IMG/VR virus record: IMGVR_UViG_3300028197_000139
Location: 1 to 25,596 of that record
DNA length: 25,596 nt
From: a virus
Direction: 5' to 3' (one strand)
Shown here: positions 2,073 to 24,515 of the stretch, one piece after another
How positions within the stretch are numbered: position 1 is the first letter of the stretch
How the letters are laid out: each line of letters opens with the position of its first letter
Position numbers and translations under genes: made by a program
The notes under the pieces: generated by a model
The model's input: the letters and a program-made list of their open reading frames with translations, nothing else
The model's database searches: none
Told to the model about the DNA's origin: nothing

Positions 2073-2230
2073 TTCTCTAGTCCTAAACACGGCAGGAGAA
2101 TAGATTGTTTACAGTTGTCTGGATAAGCAATCGCTGACCCAAGAATAGGTACACCTACCATACCAACAATAATAATCAAGAAAGCCCAGCCTAGACCTTT
2201 GTTATGATAGGGTTGGTTTGGATTACTCAT
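2069..2230 (-). CDS. 53-residue single-span membrane protein
   Basis: It begins MSNPNQPYHNKGLGW and continues into one hydrophobic helix (AFLIIIVGMVGVPILG) with a polar tail containing two cysteines. Its ATG overlaps the end of the heme oxygenase gene by 8 bp, and its TGA overlaps the ATG of the SGNH-like gene. This tight coupling on both sides is good evidence that it is translated. No family is recognised. Lying between heme oxygenase and an SGNH-like protein, it does not suggest a specific job. Confidence 0.75.
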   Translation of the reverse strand: MSNPNQPYHNKGLGWAFLIIIVGMVGVPILGSAIAYPDNCKQSILLPCLGLEK

Positions 2231-2759
2231 CTTCTAACTCCGCAAACAATCGCATAGCATAGTTAAAGCAGGTGTTGGCTTCAGGTGCCATACCATCGTG
2301 CAGTTGAGCTCTTACATCTTCTATCAACTGTTTGGGATTGTCAAAGTCATACATTGTGCCTGAGCCTGGTGCTTTGCGTTTGATCATTTGTCCACCATGC
2401 AGTTCACCAAAGTGTCTTACATATAGATGTGCTAGTATTCCGTCGTTGTCCAATGACTCTACATAGTCTGTGTACTCATGTACCACAGGACATAATTCTG
2501 TTGTTGCTCTATCAAAGCCGTGGTCTCGTTCTAGTTCCATCATGTCATTTACCATACCTGGTACTCTGCATATACCTTCTATGCCTTTGAGCAAGCCTCT
2601 GTCACGTGCTTGATCTTCTAGTGCGCCATACTGAACGCATTGGTTGTATATAAATTTGTGATACTCTTGTGGTTCCATTCCCTTGAGCAGTTTACGTGCA
2701 TGTCCCATACGTTCTGCTTTCTTGTGGTTTTCCCAAGTTAGTTCTTTTAGTTTGCTCAT
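2223..2759 (-). CDS. Heme oxygenase
   Basis: A 178-residue, single-domain heme oxygenase. These enzymes use O2 and electrons to open heme into biliverdin, CO and iron. His12 in LTWENHKKAE fits the proximal heme ligand, and YVRHFGELHGGQ (113-124) matches the distal-helix signature usually written YxRYLGDLSGGQ, with the glycines kept. The length is somewhat short for a cellular enzyme (about 200-240). Its ATG overlaps the upstream nitrilase stop as ATGA. Phage heme oxygenases are known from marine T4-like phages, where bilin synthesis or iron release has been proposed. No bilin reductase such as PebS or PcyA is visible here, so the product may simply be biliverdin plus iron. Confidence 0.9.
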   Translation of the reverse strand: MSKLKELTWENHKKAERMGHARKLLKGMEPQEYHKFIYNQCVQYGALEDQARDRGLLKGIEGICRVPGMVNDMMELERDHGFDRATTELCPVVHEYTDYVESLDNDGILAHLYVRHFGELHGGQMIKRKAPGSGTMYDFDNPKQLIEDVRAQLHDGMAPEANTCFNYAMRLFAELEDE

Positions 2760-3547: not shown

Positions 3548-4239
3548 TTCTTTTTCCTGTGAAACATTCTAGCATAGGCATTGCCTAACCAGAACTTTAG
3601 TCCTGTATCTCTATTGTTGGCCTTTTCAGTATACTCTACTTCCATGGCCCACTCTTCTCTTTTGAACGGTATTACTTGTACTAGTGGACACCCTGGCTCA
3701 ATTACTGCACGGTCTTGATCAACAGTACCAGGCCAGTTACTCCAGGGTACATCAATTGTGTCTGTGTCCACTATACCCGGGAACACAGTAAACCTTTGCT
3801 CGTGATGGTAAAAAGGCGCCATGATAAGACATGAGTAACCCGGTGGTGTTTCGATACGCCAGGGTACACTAAACGTTACATAGTCTTGTTCTTGACCTTT
3901 GTGGGCTACTGGACATTGTGTAAAGTCGTGTCCTTCTTGTGGATCTTGTTTGTCCCACGCCATAGGGTACCTACGCATAAATCTTTTAACGTCAGGGTTT
4001 TCGTCTTTGGGTGAACGTATAACTTCCATCTCAACTGGATTGTAAATCATATACCCACCAGTAATGTAATCATATACTGGCATACATTTTTTGATAGTAG
4101 GCCAACTGTTGTGTGGTTCACCTAACCACCCTCCTAGTTTGTTGTACCATTCAGGTCGAGCCTTGCTCATAGGTGTTGGTGGAAAGTATTTTTCTACGTG
4201 AGGGTCACCTGTAATAAATCTAATCTTATTCGTCATCAT
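3538..4239 (-). CDS. Conserved phage-type protein, possibly DUF6065-like
   Basis: A 233-residue soluble protein of unknown biochemical function. It has a Pro-rich start (KYFPPTPMSKARPEWY, from about residue 17), a CMPVYDYITGGY block and a PPGYSCLIMAPF block. These resemble a family of uncharacterised proteins in cyanophage-like genomes and bacteria (DUF6065-like), but this assignment is from memory of the pattern and tentative. Two ATGs occur in tandem (4239 and 4236); AGGA lies better for the second. Its start overlaps the gp41 end by 14 bp and its stop overlaps the nitrilase start. The beta-rich, jelly-roll-like composition may suggest an oxygenase-type fold, but no HxD motif was found. Confidence 0.7.
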   Translation of the reverse strand: MMTNKIRFITGDPHVEKYFPPTPMSKARPEWYNKLGGWLGEPHNSWPTIKKCMPVYDYITGGYMIYNPVEMEVIRSPKDENPDVKRFMRRYPMAWDKQDPQEGHDFTQCPVAHKGQEQDYVTFSVPWRIETPPGYSCLIMAPFYHHEQRFTVFPGIVDTDTIDVPWSNWPGTVDQDRAVIEPGCPLVQVIPFKREEWAMEVEYTEKANNRDTGLKFWLGNAYARMFHRKKKWN

Positions 4240-5653
4240 CGTTTCCTAAGTTAGTAATAAAAGATCTTAACTTAGTACTGTCTGCTTCTGCTTTAATCTT
4301 AGGTGCAGTTGTTCCTGCGTCTGGAGTTGCATTAGGATCTGTAACAGTAGATTGTCTTTTGAATCCACTTAGCAGACTGTTGTTGCTTGGTGATGTTGCA
4401 CCATCCTCATCATCCTCATCAAGATCTATAATACGTAGTGTATCAATATCAAAGCCTAAATCAATCTTTTGTCCTACACCGCCACTGTTACGTGTCTTCA
4501 TTAGCTGTAGTTGATAACGTCCACGTTCACGCATAGCCCTACTTGTAAAGATACCAAACACATTATCAGCAGTTTGTATCTTACTAAGTCCACCACTGAT
4601 GTGCGAATGATCAAATTCAATTTCTTCTACAGCACCTCTATTCAACTGTGCCGCAGTTACAAATACTGTGTTCAATTCCATTGCTAGGTTACGTAGTTCT
4701 TCTGATACAAACTTATCTTTAATGTACAAGTTCTCTGCACTAACCTTTGCACCGTTCGGCATAAGCAAGTCTAAGTAATCGATCAATAATACATCAATCT
4801 TCTTGCCTGTTTTAATTTCATATTCTTTAATATAACTTCTTACATCATTAGGCGTCTTACCACTAGGCATATACTTAACTTGAAATGCTCCATTCTTCTT
4901 ACCTATCATCTTAACTTTCATCTCAACGTCATCAATGTTTTTAAATATCTCACGACTTGGAATACCAGTTATCATACTATCTACACGCATACTAACCAAG
5001 CTCTCACTAAGCTCAAGTGTTAGATACAATACGTTAAGTCCTGCCGCGGCCCAGTTCACTCCTAGGTTTGCTAAGAACAAACTCTTACCTGCACCTGATC
5101 CACCTGCAAATATATTAAGCTCACCTCTGTTGAACCCACCAAATAGTTTCTTATCAATGGCGGCCCACCCTGTACTTACTTGTCCGTTTGTACTCTTAAT
5201 TGCTTCTAGTCTTGCTCTAGGGTCTGCCCAATAGTCTGTACCCAAGTCTTTCTGCAATCCTATTTGTACTGCTTTCTTAACTAAGTCCTCTACTGGACCA
5301 TACTCACCTTTCTCAAGTAAGTCTGCACCTTTAAGTATTGCACTCTCTAATGCTTTGTGTCTACTAAATGTTTCAAACTCTGCAAGTAACCAATCATAAT
5401 GATTCTCTTGTAAGTCACCTGGGCTCTGTAGTCCTGCTTGTGTTGCCGCATTAATCATTTCAAACGTAGGCAATGCATTATGTTCTATAACATAATCACT
5501 AAGAAACTTTGCTGGTGATTGTAATCTTCTATCAAAAGACTGTGGATCAAATACAGTTTGACATCTAACAAATGTTTCTGCATCTGTTAACATCATTTCT
5601 AGATATACTTTTTGTATATCATATCCATAGTCTGTGTTTTGTCTAGTTGTCAT
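4226..5653 (-). CDS. 41: Replicative DNA helicase, T4 gp41 / DnaB type
   Basis: A 475-residue hexameric helicase that unwinds DNA at the fork and works with the gp61 primase. The N-terminal helical domain spans about residues 1-140 and the RecA-like domain about 155-415. Visible motifs are Walker A GGSGAGKS (184-191), Walker B VLLIDYLDLL (about 288-297), the H3 motif TAAQLNR (333-339) and an arginine-finger region LMKTRNSGGVG (384-394). The length equals T4 gp41 (475). The acidic tail ending NLGNDDDE resembles flexible C-termini that bind partner proteins. A perfect TTGACA-17-TATAAT promoter lies 6 nt before the ATG and there is no SD, so a leaderless mRNA is likely. First gene of its unit. 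Confidence 0.96.
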   Translation of the reverse strand: MTTRQNTDYGYDIQKVYLEMMLTDAETFVRCQTVFDPQSFDRRLQSPAKFLSDYVIEHNALPTFEMINAATQAGLQSPGDLQENHYDWLLAEFETFSRHKALESAILKGADLLEKGEYGPVEDLVKKAVQIGLQKDLGTDYWADPRARLEAIKSTNGQVSTGWAAIDKKLFGGFNRGELNIFAGGSGAGKSLFLANLGVNWAAAGLNVLYLTLELSESLVSMRVDSMITGIPSREIFKNIDDVEMKVKMIGKKNGAFQVKYMPSGKTPNDVRSYIKEYEIKTGKKIDVLLIDYLDLLMPNGAKVSAENLYIKDKFVSEELRNLAMELNTVFVTAAQLNRGAVEEIEFDHSHISGGLSKIQTADNVFGIFTSRAMRERGRYQLQLMKTRNSGGVGQKIDLGFDIDTLRIIDLDEDDEDGATSPSNNSLLSGFKRQSTVTDPNATPDAGTTAPKIKAEADSTKLRSFITNLGNDDDE

Positions 5654-6655
5654 TTACTTATTATACCATATATTATCAGGAATGTCAAGATGTTTTTTAG
5701 TTTTAGAAAGTACTGCTCCAATACAACTACCAGGGTCTCCAGGGTTCTTAGGAACATATATGTTCTTCCAGTCTTGGCTAATAGTTTCATTAGCTTGTTT
5801 GTTTAATGCACAGCCTCCTACAAGTATTAAATTTTTACTTGGTAAGTTTTTTATACACCAATCACTAAGTGATTTAAGTATACGTTCGTATATTGCTTGT
5901 GTAGCATATGCAAGGTTGTTCATATCTTTTTTACTTGTAAGCTCAGGCATAAACCAATTACACCCTTTGTGTAGGTTATGTTTAAAATGAACTCCGGGTA
6001 TTGCGCCATCTAGTTCATCGTCAATAAAAGCCTTAGTTACTAAACCAACTAGACTATCATTACCTTTCTTTGCCATTTCAGCAATCTTATATTCATCTCT
6101 ATTAGCAACAAGTCCACAACGTTGTGTCATTGCACTATAAAACAGTCCAACACTATGCGGATAGCTTTGTGAGTAAACAGATTTAAGTTTACGTTTTTCA
6201 CCGTTCCATATAGTAAGAGTTTCAAACTCTCCAATACTGTCTAAACATATTACTGTTGCACTACGTTCCATAAACGGACTTGTATAATATCCGTAGGCCG
6301 CGTGTGCTTCGTGGTGTTTAGCATATACTATCTTACAGTCAATATCCCATCGGGCTAGATATTTTTTAATATTATTTTCTTTCCAGTTCCATCCTTGGCC
6401 TGCTCTAAACTGTCTTAGTGTTTTTAGAAAAGGTTTTTCATACCAAACAATTAAGTCAGGTGACCCATACGTCTGTCTTGCAGTTTCTAGCATTGTCCAA
6501 TTAAAGTCAGGATCATTAGGTACACCAGTAAAGTCCTTTGCAAGACCTGCCCACTTCAGTTTAGTTTTAAGTCTGTCAGTTAATCCTGCAATCTTTGTTT
6601 CAAAGACTGCTAAACTAGCATCGTGGCTGTTACCAACCATACCCCAAGTAATCAT
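5654..6655 (-). CDS. Short carbamoyltransferase (NodU/CmcH/TobZ N-domain type)
   Basis: A 333-residue protein with the Kae1-like fold of NodU/TobZ carbamoyltransferases, which move a carbamoyl group from carbamoyl phosphate to an O- or N-acceptor via a carbamoyl-adenylate. The hallmark HHEAHAA is at 114-120, followed by VICLDSIGEFETLTIW, LVGGCALN and PGDPGSCIGA. Cellular members are about 500-600 residues and have a C-terminal Carbam_trans_C domain; here the protein ends after the PGDPG block, so that domain is missing. Similar short forms occur in marine T4-like phages. The ATG overlaps the upstream membrane gene stop (ATGA). The acceptor is unknown; a sugar or modified nucleotide is plausible. 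Its stop abuts the gp41 ATG. Confidence 0.85.
   Translation of the reverse strand: MITWGMVGNSHDASLAVFETKIAGLTDRLKTKLKWAGLAKDFTGVPNDPDFNWTMLETARQTYGSPDLIVWYEKPFLKTLRQFRAGQGWNWKENNIKKYLARWDIDCKIVYAKHHEAHAAYGYYTSPFMERSATVICLDSIGEFETLTIWNGEKRKLKSVYSQSYPHSVGLFYSAMTQRCGLVANRDEYKIAEMAKKGNDSLVGLVTKAFIDDELDGAIPGVHFKHNLHKGCNWFMPELTSKKDMNNLAYATQAIYERILKSLSDWCIKNLPSKNLILVGGCALNKQANETISQDWKNIYVPKNPGDPGSCIGAVLSKTKKHLDIPDNIWYNK
5660..5688 (-). promoter_or_regulatory. Sigma70-type promoter of gp41, leaderless geometry
   Basis: The minus strand has TTGACA (5688-5683), a 17-bp spacer and TATAAT (5665-5660), both boxes full consensus. The ATG of gp41 begins 6 nt after the -10 box, so +1 is expected at the A of the start codon. 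The promoter lies inside the last codons of the carbamoyltransferase gene. Confidence 0.88.
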
Positions 6656-6888: not shown

Positions 6889-7032
6889 CTATTTGTAGAT
6901 AAACGGATCTCTTTTTTGTAGTTCCTTAATTTTTTTATCTAATGCTTTTTGTCTTTTTCGTTCTTTGAACATCTCAGCCCAATATCTTAAAGGGAATGTA
7001 ACCTGTTCCCACATAGCTTTTAACCAAACCAT
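6889..7032 (-). CDS. 47-residue basic amphipathic protein
   Basis: A short gene beginning MVWLKAMWEQVTFPLRYWAE and ending in a Lys/Arg-rich helix (KERKRQKALDKKIKELQKR). The N-terminal half is aromatic and amphipathic and may lie on the membrane; the rest is strongly charged and probably coiled. AGGAG lies 5 nt before the ATG. The start overlaps the last 13 bp of the primase gene, and the stop lies 9 bp before the next ATG. It is missed by length cut-offs but has the signals of a real gene. Function unknown. Confidence 0.7.
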   Translation of the reverse strand: MVWLKAMWEQVTFPLRYWAEMFKERKRQKALDKKIKELQKRDPFIYK

Positions 7033-7997
7033 TTCTTGCTCCTTAGTTGTATTTTTAATTTATTAAACTCAGCTGATCCAACAATAGTATGAAGTGTGTA
7101 TATTTTTCCGTACTTTTGTACTGCTTCATTAACATCGTTTACATCTTCCCAGTCTGGCATTGCAACTCCCCAACCTAGCTCTATTGCCTGCTCAACTAGT
7201 TTATGTCCTGCATCATCTCTATCAGGAACAACAATTACCTTAGTATTAATACTATTAATTAGCATGGCTTGCTGATCTTTAATCTCACTTCCGAGCAATG
7301 CAACACCTTCAACAGCAATAGCATCGAAGGGTCCTTCTACTACAACTGTATATACACGACCGTTTGCTTGTGAATCTAAGTTGAATACATATCCTGGTTG
7401 CTGATTACTTAGGTACTTAGGCTTTGCACTATCTCTATATGACCTAGCAGTGAAGCCAACTATTTCATCATCGTGATAAAACGGAACTATCAATCTATCT
7501 CTATAGCCTAGTTTATCAGTCCAATAAAAATTATAGTCATCTAAGTATAGCTGTCTTGAATGTAAGTAGTTAAGCACAGGAACTAAGTTCTCAGGTATGT
7601 CTTGTGCATAGTGTGTTAACGGCTTTGCTCCTTCAGGTAGCTCTACTGTATTAAACTTAGGTAGCTCTAGTACTTGTTGTAATTCTATATTTTCTGTTTC
7701 AAGTACAGCAAGACTTACTTTAGTAATAGTAACGTCAGGTACGTTAATCCATTCCATTAACTTTTTCAGTTTATAACTTATCTTACGTCCAGGTTTCCAA
7801 CTTGCTTTGTATCCACAATTAAAGCAATGGTAGCTAACACCGTCTTGTTCGTTATTAATGAGTCCGCCACGCTGGCGCTTGTCTGCACTATCTCCGTTAT
7901 GTATACAACAGGGTGCATTAAAACTTATCCAGCCGCTAGGAGTTTGTTTCCTTTTAGAAGGCAAGTGTGCTACTAGTGTTTCAAAGACTATACTCAT
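7020..7997 (-). CDS. 61: DNA primase, T4 gp61 type
   Basis: A 325-residue primase (T4 gp61 is 342) that makes RNA primers for lagging-strand synthesis with gp41. The N-terminal zinc site is seen as Cys30, Cys31, His33, Cys58 and Cys61 (four of these presumably bind the metal). The TOPRIM core has the catalytic Glu221 in VVVEGPFDAIAVEG and the DxD pair in VIVVPDRDDAGHK (Asp259, Asp261). A perfect TTGACA-17-TATAAT promoter lies 6 nt before the ATG and there is no SD. It leads a four-gene unit ending with the carbamoyltransferase. Confidence 0.95.
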   Translation of the reverse strand: MSIVFETLVAHLPSKRKQTPSGWISFNAPCCIHNGDSADKRQRGGLINNEQDGVSYHCFNCGYKASWKPGRKISYKLKKLMEWINVPDVTITKVSLAVLETENIELQQVLELPKFNTVELPEGAKPLTHYAQDIPENLVPVLNYLHSRQLYLDDYNFYWTDKLGYRDRLIVPFYHDDEIVGFTARSYRDSAKPKYLSNQQPGYVFNLDSQANGRVYTVVVEGPFDAIAVEGVALLGSEIKDQQAMLINSINTKVIVVPDRDDAGHKLVEQAIELGWGVAMPDWEDVNDVNEAVQKYGKIYTLHTIVGSAEFNKLKIQLRSKKWFG

Positions 7998-8032: not shown

Positions 8033-8803
8033 CTAGTTTCGGTATAAAATTTTATCGATTGTTCCAGAATTACCAGAGTCGTTAGCAAACTTAAATCTAA
8101 CATAATTGAATACACCGTTAAAGCTGTAAGGTATAGGAGCAGTTGGTGAAGATAATGTAACTGTACCAAGGTCTGCCCAGTTACTAGTATCACTAGAGCC
8201 TGATAGTGTAGCTTGTATAGTAACAGTACCTGCAAAGCCTGTGGAGTATATAGCCGCTGTATGTAATGCTTCATTAGCATTTTGCTCAGGGTGTGATTCA
8301 GCTACTGAGCTAATAGAGTCAAGGAATGTATTAATATTAGTAGAGTCTTTTGCACCTGGGAACGCACTACCAACAACTTCAATAGTACCCTTAACGCCAA
8401 ATTGTGTATCAGCATATGTTATTGCATTTGTAGAGTCTGAAGTCTTAGTTAGGTAAACAGTAAAGCTCATATACTGAGATTTATAGTTAAGTAGGTCGTT
8501 GTCTGTAATAGTAACTGTGAACTGCCCTTTGAAGTTAGGTGTTGATGTTTCTTTAATGGTTCCTGTATACTCTTTTACAATGTTGCCATCTTCGTCGAAC
8601 AAATGTAGGTAAGGTGTGTAAGTACTAAGTATGCTTACAGGTTTATGATCTGCATTTTTTATTTCAAAGGTTAAAGTATTGTCTATTCCTCTGTTTACTT
8701 TTAGGTTACGTTGATACACTTTGTTATACTCCGTGTTGGTGACGAACTCATCTATGATAAGTACGTTGTGATTAGCGACTAAATATCTAGGTGTTAATTG
8801 CAT
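8033..8803 (-). CDS. Virion structural protein of T4-like marine phages
   Basis: A 256-residue, beta-rich, Ser/Thr-rich protein. The start MQLTPRYLVANHNVLI and the following VYQRNLKVNRGIDNTLTFEI pattern resemble a virion protein found in many T4-like cyanophages, usually annotated only as structural. Repeated immunoglobulin- or lectin-like beta stretches run to the end (FNYVRFKFANDSGNSGTIDK), as expected for a baseplate or fibre-associated part; the exact location is unknown. A T4-late-type GATAAATA sits 5 nt before the ATG with no SD, fitting late expression. It stands alone: the primase promoter begins right after its stop. Confidence 0.75.
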   Translation of the reverse strand: MQLTPRYLVANHNVLIIDEFVTNTEYNKVYQRNLKVNRGIDNTLTFEIKNADHKPVSILSTYTPYLHLFDEDGNIVKEYTGTIKETSTPNFKGQFTVTITDNDLLNYKSQYMSFTVYLTKTSDSTNAITYADTQFGVKGTIEVVGSAFPGAKDSTNINTFLDSISSVAESHPEQNANEALHTAAIYSTGFAGTVTIQATLSGSSDTSNWADLGTVTLSSPTAPIPYSFNGVFNYVRFKFANDSGNSGTIDKILYRN

Positions 8804-8808
8804 ATAAT
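8803..8808 (+). promoter_or_regulatory. Possible -10 box for the divergent plus-strand gene
   Basis: A perfect TATAAT on the plus strand, with the gene's ATG at 8825 about 10 nt after the expected +1. The -35 position is poor (TAAATA at 8780-8785), so this is a weaker call than the minus-strand promoters. It interleaves with the late element read the other way. Confidence 0.4.
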
Positions 8809-8816
8809 TATTTATC
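8809..8816 (-). promoter_or_regulatory. T4-late-type promoter element of the structural gene
   Basis: The minus strand reads GATAAATA, then five nt (ATTAT), then ATG at 8803. In T4, late promoters are TATAAATA at -13 to -6 and need no -35 box. That rule places +1 on the A of the ATG, so the mRNA would be leaderless. Confidence 0.65.
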
Positions 8817-8824
8817 GGAAAACC

Positions 8825-9193
8825 ATGCTAAGAAATGATATAGAAGAAAAATTTCCATTCTTGAGCGTTGTAACATACGGCGGGCAGGAGTACATTGGAA
8901 TTATCAACAACCAAGACAATTTTGTAACGACAATGTATGTCTATACAAATTTAAGGTCTGAGGTTGAAAAACAAGGTTTCGTTGACGTTGGAGAAATATG
9001 GTGGTGGGAATCAAACAGGATGATTCCTATTAATATTTTCCTTACAAAAGAAATGGAACCATTTAGATACTGTATGCAGACTATGAACAGTAAAGATGTT
9101 AGGATTACACTTGGGCCAACAGTTAATCTTAATAATTTAAGCGTAAAAAGGGTGAAGAGAAAAAGCGTTCAGTTACTTAAGAAACCTAAGTAA
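8825..9193 (+). CDS. Conserved T4-like cyanophage-type protein, unknown function
   Basis: A 122-residue soluble protein and the only confident complete plus-strand gene. It starts MLRNDIEEKFPFLSVVTYGG and contains VDVGEIWWWESNRMIPINIF, a pattern I associate with an uncharacterised protein conserved in T4-like marine phages. The tail is basic (VKRVKRKSVQLLKKPK), which could bind nucleic acid. I chose the ATG at 8825 over one at 8798 because the longer form would overlap the divergent structural gene; GGA lies 7 nt before the chosen ATG. Its end overlaps the end of the opposing gene at 9186 by 8 bp, with no terminator between. Confidence 0.8.
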   Translation: MLRNDIEEKFPFLSVVTYGGQEYIGIINNQDNFVTTMYVYTNLRSEVEKQGFVDVGEIWWWESNRMIPINIFLTKEMEPFRYCMQTMNSKDVRITLGPTVNLNNLSVKRVKRKSVQLLKKPK

Positions 9194-9416: not shown

Positions 9417-9659
9417 CTAATCCTCTAAGTAATCATCTATGTGTTTTATACTATGTGTGTTAATAAAGATAGGTGTATCTTCACCTACCCAACTTCCGAT
9501 TACGTTATATTGAAAATGCTCGATTGCATCTTCTTCACTCATATCTTTCATTAACACAGCAATACATTCTTCGTAATCATATATTGCAACTTGCTCTCTG
9601 CTAAACGCACTTATTGAACTTCCGACAAGTGCTTGTTCAAATCCATCAGCTAACTTCAT
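9417..9659 (-). CDS. Conserved small phage protein, unknown function
   Basis: An 80-residue acidic soluble protein (MKLADGFEQALVGSSISAF at the start; YDYEECIAVLMKDMSEEDAI and NVIGSWVGEDTPIF further on). This pattern recurs in T4-like cyanophage proteins of unknown function. I chose the ATG at 9659 over a GTG at 9674 because AAGGA sits 8 nt before it. Its start overlaps the DnaE-like gene end by 14 bp. No catalytic motif is seen. Confidence 0.75.
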   Translation of the reverse strand: MKLADGFEQALVGSSISAFSREQVAIYDYEECIAVLMKDMSEEDAIEHFQYNVIGSWVGEDTPIFINTHSIKHIDDYLED

Positions 9660-10215
9660 GTTGTAATCCTTCACATATTAAATTCATATGCACAACAACT
9701 CCTACTGCATAAGCAACAGCATGTGCTTTCTTAAAATAGTATTCATTAGTTGTTGGTTTGATCCATACTTGCCCTAATACCTCTTTCCATGTCTTACCTA
9801 TCAAGTGTCTCTTAGCAGGTCGAATCATTGCTAGTATTGCCGCTAGTTGTTCTATTGTTCTAGGCTTCATTGTTCGTAGTATATCTCCGTGTCCGTTAAC
9901 ATGGAATAGTAAATCTACAAACTCGTCTTTCTCTAAGAGATCCCACAAAGGTGTTGTGTTCATTAATTTTTGTAAATGCGTATCATCTTTAACATCTTTG
10001 TATATACTAACATTAAGGAAGTCTAACTTGAAGTAACCTCTATCTTCTGCTGTCTTATGTTCGATAGTAGATATATTATCTACAGGGTTGTGTGGAATCT
10101 CTGTAGTATAGACTCCTGTGTTATGTTTCTTTCCAGATCCAAGACGTGCTACTCTATGCTCAATCTTATCAAGCACAATGTTTCTATCAGCAAAGTCTAT
10201 ATCAATATCTGGCAT
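9646..10215 (-). CDS. Miniature DnaE/PolC-like (DNA polymerase III alpha) protein
   Basis: A 189-residue protein that carries, in order, pieces typical of the DnaE palm and its surroundings. PDIDIDF (2-8) is like PDFDVDF with the first two catalytic Asp of E. coli DnaE. HNTGV (31-35) is like THAAGV. KLDFLN (63-68) has the third catalytic Asp in KFDFLGL. LRTMKPRTIEQLAAILAMIR (113-132) is like the KRLQP..IALVALFRPG region, and KKAHAVAYAVG (162-172) is like NKSHSAAYA. The whole is several times shorter than DnaE: the PHP, most finger, tau- and beta-binding parts are absent. It may be an accessory or regulatory relic rather than a polymerase. Its ATG overlaps the oxygenase stop (TAATG). Confidence 0.8.
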   Translation of the reverse strand: MPDIDIDFADRNIVLDKIEHRVARLGSGKKHNTGVYTTEIPHNPVDNISTIEHKTAEDRGYFKLDFLNVSIYKDVKDDTHLQKLMNTTPLWDLLEKDEFVDLLFHVNGHGDILRTMKPRTIEQLAAILAMIRPAKRHLIGKTWKEVLGQVWIKPTTNEYYFKKAHAVAYAVGVVVHMNLICEGLQHEVS

Positions 10216-10721
10216 TAGAAATAATTCACATTAATTGTTACACGAAATTTATCATCAGTACAAGTTGAACTAAAGTGTGCTTCACTAGGATCAAATAATA
10301 AAATACTATTCTCTATTGAGTCTACCTTTGTACCGTCATTTGTAGTTGTATATCCGTTGTTAGTATTTACAAAATATACAGCACCGTTATGACTAAATGG
10401 TTCATCTATGTGCGGATCATGTTCAAGTATAGTTTCAGTTGCAGGATATAAGTTTCCTTTAACACGTATTAAACTTCTTGGTTGTAGTTGTTGCATTAAC
10501 GGCATTAGTATTTGTCCAAACCATTCACTAGCTGGTGCATGGTCCCAGTAGAACGGATGGTACATATAGAATTCATTTTTAGTATCACTGTTTTGCGAAT
10601 CAGAAACATTACGAGACAAGTACCAAGGAAACTGTGTATGATTAACAGTATCAAGATTACACATTACATTTTTAATTTGCTCGTGTGCTTCTTTTGGCAA
10701 AAAGTTTTGTACTACTTTCAT
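10215..10721 (-). CDS. 2OG-Fe(II) oxygenase (prolyl-4-hydroxylase-like)
   Basis: A 168-residue single-domain dioxygenase. Candidate iron ligands are His104 and Asp106 (HDPHIDEPF) and His149 (SEAHF), with Arg160 (KFRVTINVNYF) for 2-oxoglutarate binding. These enzymes hydroxylate proteins, nucleic acids or small molecules using O2 and 2-oxoglutarate. Such proteins are common in T4-like marine phages, mostly with unknown substrates. Its ATG overlaps the peptide deformylase stop as ATGA, and its stop overlaps the DnaE-like gene's ATG. Confidence 0.85.
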   Translation of the reverse strand: MKVVQNFLPKEAHEQIKNVMCNLDTVNHTQFPWYLSRNVSDSQNSDTKNEFYMYHPFYWDHAPASEWFGQILMPLMQQLQPRSLIRVKGNLYPATETILEHDPHIDEPFSHNGAVYFVNTNNGYTTTNDGTKVDSIENSILLFDPSEAHFSSTCTDDKFRVTINVNYF

Positions 10722-13162: not shown

Positions 13163-13595
13163 AATATGCTACCGTGCCGTTGTTGTATTCTATTATATTA
13201 TACTTGAGATTCTTCAAAAAGTCAACCACTAACTTATTGTTGTTAACTAGTATAACTGGTTTTGATTTAAGTATAGTTTGTATTGCACCTTTAAGTACTT
13301 GCAAGTCAAACTCTCCTGTGTTTATTTTTATAACGTCTACAGTAGTAAATCTAAATTCGTCTAATGTTTTTTGATCTATTACGTATTGCCTTGTTCCGTC
13401 TTTAATAATAACTTCTTTATTAAGGTCTCCTAAAGCATATGGAAACATTTTAATAGTATTAGGTATTAAAATATTTAGTACAGGGTTAGGTTCAAATGCA
13501 TACACTCTTGTAAACTTACTAACGTATTCTGTACAAGCATTACCGTCGCCAGCGCCTATGTCAATATACGTTCTAAAGTTCTTTACGTATTCCAT
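13155..13595 (-). CDS. Short FkbM-type methyltransferase
   Basis: A 146-residue SAM-dependent methyltransferase fragment or minimal form. The SAM-binding motif I is YIDIGAGDGNACTEYV (10-25), followed by VYAFEPNP (31-38). The FkbM signature region TTVDVIKINTGEFDLQVLKG stands where family members usually have DFIKIDVEGFELEVLKG; Asn and Thr replace the Asp and Glu of that motif. Usual family length is 200-280, so it is compact. FkbM enzymes often O-methylate sugars. It overlaps kdsB by 23 bp, which suggests a role with the Kdo genes, but this is inference. Confidence 0.75.
   Translation of the reverse strand: MEYVKNFRTYIDIGAGDGNACTEYVSKFTRVYAFEPNPVLNILIPNTIKMFPYALGDLNKEVIIKDGTRQYVIDQKTLDEFRFTTVDVIKINTGEFDLQVLKGAIQTILKSKPVILVNNNKLVVDFLKNLKYNIIEYNNGTVAYYE
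13197..13225 (-). promoter_or_regulatory. Internal sigma70-type promoter inside the FkbM gene
   Basis: On the minus strand TTGACT (13225-13220), a 17-bp spacer and TATAAT (13202-13197, immediately followed by a second overlapping TATAAT) are read through as codons of the FkbM gene. Expected +1 is near 13190, about 28 nt before the ATG at 13162. Unlike the other strong promoters here, it would not give a leaderless mRNA. Confidence 0.6.
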
Positions 13596-14271
13596 TTTTA
13601 TAATTCCATAGGTGTATATCTTCTTGTGTGTTTATTTCTACTCCGTTAAATTCTACTTTTGAACAACCAATCTGCCAACCTGCTTTTAACCATCTTAGTT
13701 GCTCTAACTTCTCAACTTGTTCTTCTACAGTTAAGTCTAATGTTCTATACCATTCCAAAGGATTACGTTTATATCCATAAACACCTAAGTGCCAATTGCC
13801 GTATCCTGTCATGCCTCTCCCAAACCATAATGCTTGATCTCCTGCTGTAACCATCTTAACTGAGTTAGGATCATTTTGTAGTTCTTCAGACATATCTGTC
13901 CACACAGTACTAATAGGATAATACTTTAGCCAGTGTACACAACGTTCAATCATTTGTACAGTTATGTCAGGCATATCGCCTTGTACATTTACAAACTGAT
14001 CATACTTGTCTAAGTAATCTTGACTTAATGCCCCGGCACATCTTTCAGTACCGTTCTCATATTCTGTATCTTCTATAAGGACTGTATATTGATCGTTAAC
14101 ACAATTAGCAACACGTACATCATCAGTTAACACATATACAGGTAGCTCTGACTTACGTGCCGCATCTGCTACACGTCTAATCATAGGTACACCATCTAGT
14201 TCAACTAATGGCTTGCCTGGATATCTTGTACTTGCATATCTAGCGGGTATAAGAATAGCTGTGGATTTCAT
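13573..14271 (-). CDS. kdsB: CMP-Kdo synthetase (3-deoxy-manno-octulosonate cytidylyltransferase)
   Basis: A 232-residue enzyme that activates Kdo with CTP to CMP-Kdo, the donor for Kdo transferases. Nucleotide-binding IPARYASTRYPGKPL is at 8-22, NGTERCAGA at 73-81 and NVQGDMP at 95-101 (usually NVQGDEP; Met replaces Glu while the metal-binding Asp stays). WHLGVYGYKRNPLEWY and VEKLEQLRWLKAGWQIG match the Kdo-binding and dimer parts. Cellular enzymes are about 245-250 residues. It overlaps kdsA by 32 bp, which strongly supports the Kdo assignment over other sugar-acid cytidylyltransferases. Confidence 0.92.
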   Translation of the reverse strand: MKSTAILIPARYASTRYPGKPLVELDGVPMIRRVADAARKSELPVYVLTDDVRVANCVNDQYTVLIEDTEYENGTERCAGALSQDYLDKYDQFVNVQGDMPDITVQMIERCVHWLKYYPISTVWTDMSEELQNDPNSVKMVTAGDQALWFGRGMTGYGNWHLGVYGYKRNPLEWYRTLDLTVEEQVEKLEQLRWLKAGWQIGCSKVEFNGVEINTQEDIHLWNYKNGIRKEL

Positions 14272-15031
14272 CTATAGTCCTTTCGAAATCATCTAAGTGT
14301 AGCATATTGGGTCCGTCACTGGGTGCATTGTCAGGATCAGTATGAACTTCTAAAAAGAAATTCCTAATCCCCAAAGCACTACCTGCCCTACATAAACCAG
14401 GAACGTAATTGCGATTGCCGCCGCTACTGCCTCCGAGACCGCCAGGTTTCTGTACGCTGTGGGTGGCATCAAGAACCACAGGGGTATCGTAATTACTAAG
14501 CATGTAGTCCAAGCCAGTAAAATCAACAACAAGGGTATTGTATCCAAAACTTGTTCCTCTCTCTGTTATCCAAACTTCTTTGGCACCTTCTGTCTTTGAC
14601 AGTATACCATTCATGTCCCAGGGTGCAAGGAACTGGCCTTTCTTTATATTTACTATCTTGTCTGTAGCACAAGCCGCCTGTAACAGATCTGTTTGCCTAC
14701 ATAAGAATGCTGGAATTTGTAATACATCTACTGCATCATTAAATTCTCTTACTATATGTGCAACCTGCACATAGTCATGTACATCAGTAAGTGTTTTAAT
14801 ACTTACGTTCATGTATTTTATTTTTTGTTTAATAGTAGCAAAGTCTGTTAATGTTTGTTCCATACCAACACCACGCTTACCTCCTAAGCTACTTCTATTA
14901 GCTTTGTCATAACTTGCTTTGAATATATATTCTGCACCATACTTATGACACACGTCTGCACAATGTTGTGCAATCTCTAAGCTATGTTCTAAACTTTCGT
15001 GTTGGCAAGGCCCAGCTATAATTTTAATCAT
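14240..15031 (-). CDS. kdsA: Kdo-8-phosphate synthase, metal-dependent class
   Basis: A 263-residue enzyme condensing phosphoenolpyruvate with arabinose-5-phosphate to Kdo-8-phosphate. Signatures include FKASYDKANRSS (37-48), DVLQIPAFLCRQTDLL (102-117), VNIKKGQFLAPWDM (127-140) and DATHSVQKPGG (188-198). Cys9 in AGPCQHES, His191, Glu228 and Asp239 match the metal ligands of class II enzymes such as that of Aquifex; metal-free enzymes like E. coli have Asn at the first site. I chose the ATG at 15031, overlapping the phosphoribosyltransferase stop (ATGA), over a GTG four codons earlier. KdsD and KdsC functions are not encoded nearby and would come from the host. Confidence 0.95.
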   Translation of the reverse strand: MIKIIAGPCQHESLEHSLEIAQHCADVCHKYGAEYIFKASYDKANRSSLGGKRGVGMEQTLTDFATIKQKIKYMNVSIKTLTDVHDYVQVAHIVREFNDAVDVLQIPAFLCRQTDLLQAACATDKIVNIKKGQFLAPWDMNGILSKTEGAKEVWITERGTSFGYNTLVVDFTGLDYMLSNYDTPVVLDATHSVQKPGGLGGSSGGNRNYVPGLCRAGSALGIRNFFLEVHTDPDNAPSDGPNMLHLDDFERTIDEIHSYSYTR

Positions 15032-15447
15032 GGCGTATTCCACGGCGGAGTTGGCATTGTAAATAGTGCTTTGGTGTGATAAGGGTTTACATTGCTAGGC
15101 TTTCTAGCAAACACTACCCAACGATATCCTTGACCCATAGACCACATTGGATATTCTTCTTTAATAAAATCTAACATACTTGTGCCTGTAGTAAACACAT
15201 CATCACAGATCATAATTTGATCTGTGTCGTTACCACTTGCATATTCATTCATTGCTTCTGCAAATTTGAGTCCACCTCTTGGAATACCAACTGCTTTATA
15301 AAAAGGTCGAGTTTGGTGATCCATAACCATTTTTGCTAGGCAACGCCATTCATCATCTGTAATAGCATCGCATTCTATCTTCCAACTCATAGGAATACCT
15401 GCATGACTAATAAAATCTAATTTCTGAAATAAATCAATATTGCTCAT
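15028..15447 (-). CDS. Phosphoribosyltransferase-fold protein
   Basis: A 139-residue type I PRTase-like protein. The PRPP-binding signature IMICDDVFTTGTSM is at 78-91, and GIPRGG at 54-59 fits the pyrophosphate loop region. The N-terminal hood resembles orotate- or xanthine-type enzymes but is short. The base substrate cannot be read from the sequence. Such proteins occur in T4-like marine phages and may act in nucleotide salvage. Its ATG overlaps the upstream stop and its stop overlaps kdsA (both ATGA). Confidence 0.85.
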   Translation of the reverse strand: MSNIDLFQKLDFISHAGIPMSWKIECDAITDDEWRCLAKMVMDHQTRPFYKAVGIPRGGLKFAEAMNEYASGNDTDQIMICDDVFTTGTSMLDFIKEEYPMWSMGQGYRWVVFARKPSNVNPYHTKALFTMPTPPWNTP

Positions 15448-16907: not shown

Positions 16908-18365
16908 TTAGTTCCAGTCTATTTTTTCGATTGTAAAAGGGTACTCTGCCTCTTTGTAGAATTTCTTACGTTGAGTCAAGTGTCGCTTTGCAAACTTACA
17001 TGAAGATGTAAGATCCCATATTTGTACAAAGTCTTTGTCTTTTGCCTTTCTTACGCCTCTACCAATTGATTGGATTACCCGAACAAAAGATTTTCCAGGT
17101 TCAATAAGTACAAGATTAAAGATCCTAGGTATATTAATACCCACTGCCGCAACTCCGTAGGTTGCAATAATAACTTCATTAGTACCTTCTTTAATCGTAT
17201 CATACGTTTCCTTGCGGTCTTTTAATTTAACATCGCCTTTAATGAACACAGAATCTTCTATGTGTTCTTGTAACATTTCGCCAGCACTAATTCTATCTAC
17301 AAGTATTAATGTGTTACCTGACTTCTTAATTGAGTTTAACATTTTGCCTATGTACGTTATCCTATCTTTGTTAGTAACAAGATATTTTAATTCTTCTTGG
17401 TAATTACTATGTGCAGGAATGTCAAGTAACTGACAAACGTTTACATGACATTGTGCAAGTACACCTCTATCTTGTAATTCTTTTGCTGTAATATTACCTG
17501 TAACAGGACCTAGACTTGCAAGTATACTTTGAAATTCAAACTGTTCTTTTGGTATTGTTCCTGTTAGTCCCCAACGTATTGGAGCATTACGCAAGTTACG
17601 TGTGAGTAAGTTTTTAAGCACTTCTGCTTTTGCTTGGTGTACTTCGTCAACAATAATTGTACTGACACCTTCTAAAAACTCGGCAAGACTCAATATGGCA
17701 GTACCGTCTTTATTTTTTTTATCTAGAATATTTAGACTTTGCCAAGTACAAATAGTATGAGTCTTGCCTAGTTCTTTCCTATCACCAAAATACACACCTA
17801 CATCTAAGCCACAGTTAATATAGTCTTCCTCAGTCTGCGTGACTAGACTTTTATTGGGAACCACTACCAGGCTACGCCCGTAAGTTTCTGTTAACTTGCT
17901 CAGTGTCGCAGTTATGATAGTCTTGCCTGCTCCAGTTGCAACTTCCTGCAAGGCCTGGGGGTTACTTAAGAAGTTATTGACTACCTCAACTTGATAGTCC
18001 CGCAACCGGATTGTTTCACCTTCAGCAGGATGTCCTTTGGGCCAACATGTGTCTTTCCAAAAGTCTTCAGCTACTGTAGGAAATTTAAAATCAATAGAAG
18101 CACGTCTATCTATTACATCTGTAATTTCAACGCCACTATCGATTAAGGTATTGACAATAGTATCAAGATGATTAACATATCCTGTACCGCCAATACCGAA
18201 GAAAGCTACCTTACCATCCCAACGCCCTAGTTTATACTGAGGCATATAACGAGCATAAGGTACCTCGAATTTTAATTTATTTGCTATCTTACGTCTGTAT
18301 TCAACCGGAAGTCCTTCAACCTTCATATTAACTTCATCTTCGATAATAATCTTACATGTTGTCAT
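16908..18365 (-). CDS. uvsW: UvsW-type SF2 DNA helicase
   Basis: A 485-residue superfamily 2 helicase (T4 UvsW is 502). UvsW unwinds R-loops and branched DNA and promotes fork regression, so it favours recombination-dependent late replication. An N-terminal DNA-binding part (1-115) precedes the Q-like motif LRDYQ (121-125). Motif I is ATGAGKT (143-149), motif II is DEVH (240-243), motif III is LTGT (267-270), motif V region IIATYGVAAVGINIP (399-413) and motif VI QSIGRGVRK (432-440). The ATG overlaps the TAA of the 411-residue gene. There is no strong own promoter, though a TTGACT-17-GATAAT lies about 50 bp upstream (18419-18447). Confidence 0.95.
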   Translation of the reverse strand: MTTCKIIIEDEVNMKVEGLPVEYRRKIANKLKFEVPYARYMPQYKLGRWDGKVAFFGIGGTGYVNHLDTIVNTLIDSGVEITDVIDRRASIDFKFPTVAEDFWKDTCWPKGHPAEGETIRLRDYQVEVVNNFLSNPQALQEVATGAGKTIITATLSKLTETYGRSLVVVPNKSLVTQTEEDYINCGLDVGVYFGDRKELGKTHTICTWQSLNILDKKNKDGTAILSLAEFLEGVSTIIVDEVHQAKAEVLKNLLTRNLRNAPIRWGLTGTIPKEQFEFQSILASLGPVTGNITAKELQDRGVLAQCHVNVCQLLDIPAHSNYQEELKYLVTNKDRITYIGKMLNSIKKSGNTLILVDRISAGEMLQEHIEDSVFIKGDVKLKDRKETYDTIKEGTNEVIIATYGVAAVGINIPRIFNLVLIEPGKSFVRVIQSIGRGVRKAKDKDFVQIWDLTSSCKFAKRHLTQRKKFYKEAEYPFTIEKIDWN

Positions 18366-23065: not shown

Positions 23066-23742
23066 TAAGTGTTCTCCATCATACTATACAATTCATCTTT
23101 CCATAACTGATGAAACTCGCAGTCTCTATAGTTTTCAAACCAAGGTCCACCTTCTGTATAGTGTATTAGTTTTGGTTTTGGAATATCGTTATATACACTT
23201 ACTAAGTAGTTCCACGTATGGTTAATACTACCAATCTCTTCATCCTTTAACCAGCTAAAGCGATGCATGTATGCACCATTTAGTTCAATGTCATTAACAA
23301 AGTCTTGTGTAACTACAGCATTACTTGGGTGTCCGCAGTTCCATAGTACCATTGAACTCCAATTTTTACGTGGGTATATTGTTTGTTTCTGTCCATCCAT
23401 TTTAGTATCTTCTGTAACCTTATAATCATGTTGTACACACATTACAGCATACTTATCGTCAGCTTGATCAAACAATTCTTTAATGTCTGTTGTTAGTATC
23501 ATATCACTATCCATAAACACAGCCCAACCTTTAAAGTTAGTAAGTTCAGGAATAAGGAATCTTGTAAACGTAAATTCTGTTGATGCTAGTTTATCAATTG
23601 GTCTTTTATACCAACCTGCATCTCTTAGTTCTTGTTGCTTTAATGGACGTACATCTACATCTTTGCTTTTATTTTCAATACTATGTTTACACACTTGATA
23701 TGCGATATCTTCTCGTGTGTCGTATCCTACAAATACTTTCAT
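23065..23742 (-). CDS. GT8-like glycosyltransferase
   Basis: A 225-residue GT-A enzyme. It starts MKVFVGYDTREDIAYQVCKH, and the DxD motif is in WAVFMDSDMILTTDI (Asp78 and Asp80). C-terminal KPKLIHYTEGGPWFENY has the His/Gly-rich loop seen in GT8-type enzymes. Such proteins are frequent in T4-like marine phages and are presumed to modify LPS or virion proteins. I chose the ATG at 23742, overlapping the preceding stop as ATGA, over a GTG three codons earlier. Confidence 0.87.
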   Translation of the reverse strand: MKVFVGYDTREDIAYQVCKHSIENKSKDVDVRPLKQQELRDAGWYKRPIDKLASTEFTFTRFLIPELTNFKGWAVFMDSDMILTTDIKELFDQADDKYAVMCVQHDYKVTEDTKMDGQKQTIYPRKNWSSMVLWNCGHPSNAVVTQDFVNDIELNGAYMHRFSWLKDEEIGSINHTWNYLVSVYNDIPKPKLIHYTEGGPWFENYRDCEFHQLWKDELYSMMENT

Positions 23743-24515
23743 GGATCCCACCTTTCTATATCATCTTCTCTTAATTTATCAGTCTTGCCTTTCCACACTT
23801 CTACAATATGTGCAGGCTTGTCGCTATCGTTACACCCTTGATGCCAAACATTAGATGGAATATCTAACGGGTTAGCAGGGTGCAAATGATTTACAAGACA
23901 TCCATCAAATGGATCTCCACCGTTCTTCATTTTAACATGTGCCTTGCCACTTACAATATTCCAAGTTTCACTTCTGTGTTTATGTCGTTGCATACTAAGT
24001 TTACTATGTGGATATATAACAAGTTCTTTAACTTGAAATCCTTCACCTTGATATAGCTCTCTATAATGACCCCAACTTCGTTCTACCTTAGGTACTTTCC
24101 ATTCTTTAAGTATCCAACTACTTGAATTCTTTTTATCTTCGCCACCTATACCATATACAAATTCTACCTTATCGTGGTACGTATCATACTCGGGTACGTT
24201 ACCATCAATTCTATCTCCGCCATTAGCAAATACAATTTCAACGCCACTCATTGTTGCTAGTGTTTTATAAATTGCCCCACATGCTGTATCGTCTGAATCA
24301 TCGAAACTAATAACATCATCTACAACACTTAGTCCGTTAATGATCTCAATACGTTCTTGGAAGGGCATAAAAGGTTTGCCTTTTTTACGTGTAAGCCACT
24401 CGTCACTATTAAGACCAACAATTAATTTATCACCTAATTGTTTTGCGGCTTTGAAATAAGCTAAATGTCCTGAGTGTATAGGATCAAATCCACCTGTAAC
24501 TAATACGACTTTCAT
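23739..24515 (-). CDS. Nucleotidyltransferase-cupin fusion (TagD/RfaE-C plus ManC-type cupin)
   Basis: A 258-residue two-domain protein. Residues 1-133 form a cytidylyltransferase-like domain with GGFDPIHSGHL (8-18; HxGH is 14-17) and LTRKKGKPFMPFQER (41-55), as in TagD or the ADP-heptose-forming part of RfaE. Residues about 145-245 are a mannose-6-phosphate-isomerase-type cupin (MQRHKHRSETWNIVSGKAHV). The pair suggests making and remodelling an activated sugar or polyol for the glycosyltransferases downstream. A CATAAATA late-type promoter lies 5 nt before the ATG, with no SD. It is the first gene of a six-gene unit. Confidence 0.87.
   Translation of the reverse strand: MKVVLVTGGFDPIHSGHLAYFKAAKQLGDKLIVGLNSDEWLTRKKGKPFMPFQERIEIINGLSVVDDVISFDDSDDTACGAIYKTLATMSGVEIVFANGGDRIDGNVPEYDTYHDKVEFVYGIGGEDKKNSSSWILKEWKVPKVERSWGHYRELYQGEGFQVKELVIYPHSKLSMQRHKHRSETWNIVSGKAHVKMKNGGDPFDGCLVNHLHPANPLDIPSNVWHQGCNDSDKPAHIVEVWKGKTDKLREDDIERWDP

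What the first reader, a model, noticed from the sequence alone, without database searches (positions are those of the whole stretch)
9646..10215. A 189-residue miniature DnaE/PolC-like protein keeping all three catalytic Asp motifs
The order PDIDIDF, HNTGV, KLDFLN, MKPRTIEQLAAILAMIRP, KKAHAVAYA follows bacterial DnaE across more than 500 residues, but here within 189. The three Asp of the polymerase site are kept, so it is not simply a decayed fragment, yet PHP, most of the fingers and the clamp-binding parts are missing. T4-like phages use a B-family polymerase (gp43), so this may be a special short-patch enzyme, a nucleotide-binding regulator, or a decoy for the host polymerase complex. I do not know of an established function.
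Basis: partly seen in the sequence, partly recalled or inferred. Interest (0 to 1): 0.75.

Follow-up and report, generated by a model that had tools for sequence, protein, structure and literature searches.

The report
Half of a split mini-DNA-polymerase III
The small phage protein is real and is the metal-binding half of a miniature bacterial-type DNA polymerase whose nucleotide-binding half is made from a distant gene; this two-part enzyme was described from other giant phages in 2021 but has not, as far as the papers searched here show, been tested in the laboratory, and it lacks three of the four arginines that normally grip the incoming nucleotide.

Summary
The 189-codon ORF at 9646-10215 (minus strand) is homologous to the palm and a stub of the fingers of DnaE, in DnaE order, with all three catalytic Asp (D3, D5, D65 = E. 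coli D401, D403, D555). Its family (PHROG 11778) has hundreds of relatives, is under purifying selection, and a confident AlphaFold model finds only DnaE structures among credible PDB matches. The interpretation misses the main point: this is the C-terminal half of a SPLIT minimal Pol III alpha. A separate gene (PHROG 11127), 30-220 kb away in complete relatives, encodes the missing GRGS nucleotide-binding half and stops where DnaE would run into PDIDxDF. Of the 60 listed reference records with the C half, 59 also have the N half. Iyer et al. 2021 (PMC7824862) already described this two-gene enzyme in group 2.2 jumbo phages, so this is a new member of a known kind. New here: of four arginines reported to contact the nucleotide, R362 is kept, R390 is Glu/Asp in 80/80 N halves, and R709/R710 are deleted, so catalysis cannot be assumed. 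Many related contigs also carry a 551-aa single-chain PHP-less DnaE. Function is untested; a two-subunit repair/gap-filling polymerase beside gp43 is most likely.

The parts
9646..10215 (-). C-terminal half of a split minimal DnaE-type Pol III alpha (189 aa, PHROG 11778): Mg-binding palm carboxylates plus a stub of the fingers
10192..10215 (-). MPDIDIDF: start codon and palm motif with catalytic D3 and D5 (E. coli D401, D403) and DnaE-type D7 (D405); the chain begins where the N half stops
10111..10125 (-). HNTGV, equivalent of E. coli H511-G514 (HAGGV); thumb lost just before it
10012..10029 (-). KLDFLN with K63 and third catalytic D65 (E. coli K553, D555)
9811..9834 (-). LAMIRPAK: finger helix and R132-P133 (E. 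coli R639-P640); K135 is an invariant Lys not seen in DnaE
9721..9735 (-). FKKAH: steric-gate helix, H165 = E. coli H760; K162 replaces N757; the E. coli R709/R710 segment before it is deleted
8798..9193 (+). phrog_11637, unknown function: opposite-strand neighbour convergent with the C-half gene in five diverse jumbo phages, candidate partner or regulator (context)
7020..7997 (-). Toprim primase (context: same replication cluster in relatives)
4226..5653 (-). DnaB-like replicative helicase, gp41 type (context)
16908..18365 (-). UvsW-like helicase (context; upstream flank of the same cluster in relatives)

Best explanation
The ORF encodes the C-terminal subunit of a two-subunit (split) minimal DnaE-type family-C DNA polymerase. 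It supplies the Mg2+-binding Asp triad, the conserved palm lysine, the steric-gate His and a short template-side finger helix. A second protein (about 165-185 aa, PHROG 11127) encoded far away supplies the GRGS helix that holds the nucleotide. The two must dock to complete one pol-beta-like palm. Without PHP, thumb, most of the fingers, clamp motif or OB domain the enzyme should be distributive and depend on partners, so the likeliest job is short gap filling, repair or restart beside the family-B replicase gp43. Shown: homology, complementary split, co-occurrence, conservation of active-site residues, purifying selection. Inferred: physical assembly, catalysis, biological role.
For: C half matches E. 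coli DnaE from residue 399 on, N half matches 322-392, with no overlap and a cut in the loop between; profile-profile E 1.5e-8 and 8.8e-12. Both models (pLDDT 91.7 and 90.6) retrieve DnaE/PolC structures first. Of the 60 listed phage records with the C half, 59 also have the N half; the exception is a 109,507-bp record. Among IMG/VR contigs of at least 250 kb with either half, 9 of 11 have both. Catalytic residues invariant in 78-80 divergent sequences; median dN/dS about 0.11 (C) and 0.19 (N). The C half lies in a replication cluster with primase and DnaB-like helicase in all five annotated relatives examined. Family-B polymerase present in 5 of 5 complete relatives. PMC7824862 reached the same split-enzyme reading independently.
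Against: Three of four arginines reported to contact dATP in E. coli (R362, R390, R709, R710; PMC4374717) are gone: R390 is Glu (78) or Asp (2) in 80/80 N halves, and the R709/R710 segment is deleted; mini-specific invariant lysines K135 and K162 may compensate, but that is inference. No natural fusion of the halves was found among 165 C and 173 N ORFs. The two genes are far apart, so joint expression is not shown. Two large contigs carry only one half (359 kb: N only; 262 kb: C only), though they may be incomplete. No complex could be modelled.
Confidence: 0.72

Rival explanations
1. The two halves assemble but are no longer a template-directed DNA polymerase: a repurposed metal-dependent nucleotidyltransferase (for example adding a nucleotide to a DNA or RNA end or to a protein), with a rewired phosphate site.
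For: Mg2+ Asp, GS motif and steric-gate His are kept but R390 is reversed to Glu/Asp in all 80 N halves and R709/R710 are deleted; new invariant Lys at positions 135 and 162; no thumb to hold a duplex.
Against: The steric-gate His and the finger helix, features of dNTP selection on a template, are invariant; the gene sits with primase, helicase and UvsW.
Confidence: 0.15
2. The C half works alone as a nucleotide- or DNA-binding regulator of gp43 or of the host replisome (or as a decoy), without catalysis.
For: Small size; lacks the GS motif in its own chain; dNTP-contact Arg missing from the family.
Against: Absolute conservation of all three catalytic Asp and of K63 and H165 is not expected of a non-catalytic binder; near-perfect co-occurrence with the N half.
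Confidence: 0.1
3. A decayed remnant of a former full-length phage DnaE (for example of the 551-aa PHP-less DnaE seen in related contigs).
For: Most DnaE domains are missing; full single-chain DnaE relatives exist in the same phage group.
Against: Purifying selection, invariant active-site residues in many relatives, conserved synteny across very different hosts, and co-existence with the 551-aa protein in 11 of 11 contigs tested.
Confidence: 0.03

Closest known systems
Split minimal DNA polymerase III alpha of group 2.2 jumbo phages (Iyer et al. 2021, PMC7824862; PHROG 11127 + 11778)
   Same: Same C-terminal Mg2+/template-binding protein, same separate N-terminal NTP-binding protein, distant genes, accompanied by a family-B polymerase, no PHP or other Pol III domains.
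   Different: This member is in a T4-like metagenomic lineage; the N half is not on the 25.6-kb window but is seen in relatives; loss of R390 and R709/R710 is not mentioned in the passages read.
Bacterial DnaE (Pol III alpha; solved structures 5lew, 2hpi, 2hnh)
   Same: Palm motifs PDIDxDF, KxD, IRP finger helix, FxKxH steric-gate helix in the same order; DnaE-type D405.
   Different: No PHP, thumb, most of fingers, HhH, clamp motif, OB, CTD; GRGS in another gene; R390 to Glu/Asp; R709/R710 absent.
Phage single-chain DnaE (PHROG 405 and 11165; also the 551-aa PHP-less DnaE found here in related contigs)
   Same: Family-C palm, phage-encoded.
   Different: One chain with thumb and fingers and R390/R709 retained.
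CBB_328 of phage CBB, 'truncated' Pol III alpha of 172 aa (PMC5259590)
   Same: The N-half partner, noted in 2017 as truncated.
   Different: It is the other half; its C-half partner was not recognised in the passages read.

Membership tests
Split minimal Pol III alpha of group 2.2 jumbo phages (C-terminal subunit) | Member of the C-terminal family (PHROG 11778) with D401, D403, D555 equivalents | tested here: met
   E 3.3e-59
Split minimal Pol III alpha of group 2.2 jumbo phages (C-terminal subunit) | Separate distant gene for the N-terminal GRGS half in the same genome | tested here: inconclusive
   not on the 25.6-kb window, which is a fragment; present in most large relatives and in 59 of 60 listed reference records
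Split minimal Pol III alpha of group 2.2 jumbo phages (C-terminal subunit) | Family-B polymerase in the same genome | tested here: inconclusive
   not tested on the window fragment itself; present in 5/5 complete relatives and in 5 of 7 large related contigs (G001, G002, G004, G018, G026; not G003, G031)
DnaE (family C DNA polymerase) | Three catalytic Asp and DnaE-type D405 (Asn in PolC) | tested here: met
   D3, D5, D7, D65; criterion from PMC3919608
DnaE (family C DNA polymerase) | Intact polymerase core in one chain with GRGS and dNTP-contact Arg R362, R390, R709, R710 | tested here: not met
   GRGS/R362 in another gene; R390 is Glu/Asp; R709/R710 deleted
DnaE (family C DNA polymerase) | PHP and (HhH)2 domains nearly universal | tested here: not met
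   no such Pfam match in the 189-aa chain, against E. coli DnaE as control
DnaE (family C DNA polymerase) | Template-directed DNA synthesis | not testable with these tools
   needs purified proteins

The most novel reading that the evidence does not exclude
The split enzyme keeps the metal site and steric gate but has replaced the DnaE triphosphate-binding arginines (R390 to Glu/Asp, R709/R710 lost, new invariant lysines K135 and K162), so it is a family-C nucleotidyltransferase with altered chemistry or substrate rather than a small replicase, active only when two distantly encoded subunits meet.
Probability: 0.2. Interest if true: 0.75.

Novelty: new member of a known kind. Interest (0 to 1): 0.45.

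Why it matters
A two-gene, roughly 360-residue family-C polymerase beside a family-B replicase would be an unusually small member of its class, and Iyer et al. propose it as a model of ancestral Pol III. No experimental work on it turned up in the papers searched. The paired genes, clean cut, invariant active site and conspicuous Arg losses make the question directly testable with two small proteins.

Tried and rejected
Stand-alone mini-polymerase: rejected because the GS motif is supplied by another gene. Intein or trans-splicing split: the N half ends ...EFLR/K and the C half begins MPDIDIDF with no intein sequence visible. Natural fusion of the halves: none among 165 C and 173 N ORFs. N half on the window: none. 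Solved homologue by single-sequence search: only E 0.91, profile needed. PolC origin: not favoured, D405 is Asp as in DnaE. A rooted tree against DnaE/PolC was not built (short alignable region, no PolC set). The lone halves in the 359-kb and 262-kb contigs stayed unexplained; those contigs may be incomplete. That the contigs are marine was not tested.

Full report
What is there. The 189-aa ORF lies at 9646-10215 on the minus strand. The window is a 25,596-base virus record, with T4-type replication genes on the same strand: UvsW-like helicase 16908-18365, Toprim primase 7020-7997, DnaB-like helicase 4226-5653. The ORF's ATG overlaps the stop codon of the gene before it.

Is it DnaE-like? Yes. 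Single-sequence searches are weak (Pfam finger domain E 0.01; NCBIfam polc E 3.6e-4; PDB E 0.91), but the ORF belongs to PHROG 11778 (E 3.3e-59), and a profile of 79 non-redundant sequences (A6) matches a DnaE profile at E 1.5e-8. Against E. coli DnaE the matches are collinear: 399-420, 596-641 and 753-767. The AlphaFold model has mean pLDDT 91.7 and the first 14 Foldseek hits in the PDB are all DnaE; nothing else has E below 1. TM-scores normalised to the query are modest (0.37-0.45), as expected for part of a palm and a stub of the fingers.

What is kept and lost. Residues equivalent to D401, D403, D405, H511, G514, K553, D555, R639, P640 and H760 (the steric gate, PMC8485763) are invariant in 78-79 sequences. 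Lost: PHP, thumb, most of the fingers including R709/R710, HhH, clamp motif, OB and C-terminal domain. The GRGS motif is not in this chain.

The missing half. In five complete jumbo phages a PF07733 search found exactly one strong match each, elsewhere in the genome, covering only the part upstream of PDIDxDF (GAP32 also gave one weak sub-threshold match). These ORFs (PHROG 11127) encode a W/KGxGRGSxVxSY motif and end ...LDxxEFL plus one or two residues, just where DnaE continues into the PDIDxDF strand; the profile of 80 N halves matches E. coli 322-392, E 8.8e-12 profile-profile, and its model (pLDDT 90.6) retrieves DnaE/PolC structures first. N and C halves are about 31 kb apart in PBECO4, 34 kb in GAP32, 44 kb in Paride, 120 kb in contig G001 and over 180 kb in Atu_ph07 and Phosso. 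The N gene sits beside a small MNARGD protein and a GroES-like protein.

Co-occurrence. Comparing the listed hits record by record, 59 of 60 phage records with the C half have the N half; the exception, PP728206, is only 109,507 bases. One further C-half record was not listed. Of 11 IMG/VR contigs of at least 250 kb with either half, 9 have both, one (359 kb) only N and one (262 kb) only C. Family-B polymerase is present in all five complete phages.

Is it functional? Median pairwise dN/dS is about 0.11 for C and 0.19 for N (Nei-Gojobori, pairs not independent), so both are under purifying selection. Yet the nucleotide site is altered. PMC4374717 lists R362 and R390 (palm) and R709, R710 (fingers) of E. 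coli as contacting dATP. R362 is kept in 80/80 N halves; R390 is Glu in 78 and Asp in 2; the R709/R710 segment is deleted. In the DnaE set (A9) R390 and R709 are invariant. Two lysines, K135 (E. coli P642) and K162 (N757), are invariant or nearly so in the mini family and are never Lys in A9; whether they take over phosphate binding is inference.

Known status. Iyer and colleagues (PMC7824862) described exactly this: a phage-specific minimal Pol III alpha split into an N-terminal NTP-binding and a C-terminal Mg2+/template-binding protein in group 2.2 jumbo phages, with a possible role in one-strand synthesis or repair, and as a model of ancestral Pol III. Earlier genome papers saw one half as 'truncated' (PMC5259590) or as a Pol III alpha (PMC6102473). 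A 2026 jumbo-phage review does not mention it. No biochemical study turned up in the searches made, which cover open-licence papers only.

Extra finding. In contigs such as those behind L033 and L049 a 551-aa single-chain DnaE without PHP, with R390 and R709 retained, lies just after the DnaB-like helicase. 308 candidate stretches encoding relatives of it were found, all 11 tested contigs also carry the C half, and a distant relative (36%) is in the 484-kb phage LR756508, which has a family-B polymerase but no convincing separate C half (only E 0.004, inside the single-chain protein). It was not found in the large contigs with both halves. The window does not have it at that place.

Verdict. 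Observation confirmed; the protein is the catalytic-metal half of a split, already described mini-Pol III. Mechanism is inferred, with the arginine losses as the main doubt.

Noticed in passing
L106:1444-3099 (+), L107, and contigs behind L356-L435: A 551-aa single-chain DnaE-like polymerase without PHP domain next to the DnaB-like helicase in many related contigs; all 11 tested also carry the mini C half. No family-B polymerase was seen on those contigs, but they are at most 101 kb.
   Followed up: partly
window 8798-9193 (+): phrog_11637, unknown function, convergent with the C-half gene in five diverse jumbo phages (3' ends overlapping) and with nearly the same phage distribution (58 vs 61 records); candidate partner or regulator of the split polymerase.
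   Followed up: partly
L103:1885-2555, L104:2071-2861, L105:2062-2856: The N-half gene is followed by a small 'VNARGDELGPGGKI' protein of unknown function and a GroES-like protein, an arrangement also seen in GAP32, PBECO4, Paride, Phosso and Atu_ph07.
   Followed up: no
window 2223-2759 (-): Heme oxygenase (PF01126, E 7.8e-14) in the phage window.
   Followed up: no
window 13573-15043 (-): DAHP/KDO-8-P-synthase-like gene next to a cytidylyltransferase (KdsA/KdsB-like), plus a cytidylyltransferase-cupin fusion at 23739-24515: a sugar-activation module.
   Followed up: no
window 5654-6655 (-): Carbamoyltransferase (PF02543, E 6.7e-30) between primase and helicase.
   Followed up: no
window 10215-10721 (-): Gene directly upstream of and overlapping the C half matches phrog_274, labelled endonuclease V, but by eye resembles a 2OG-Fe(II) dioxygenase; the label may be wrong.
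   Followed up: no
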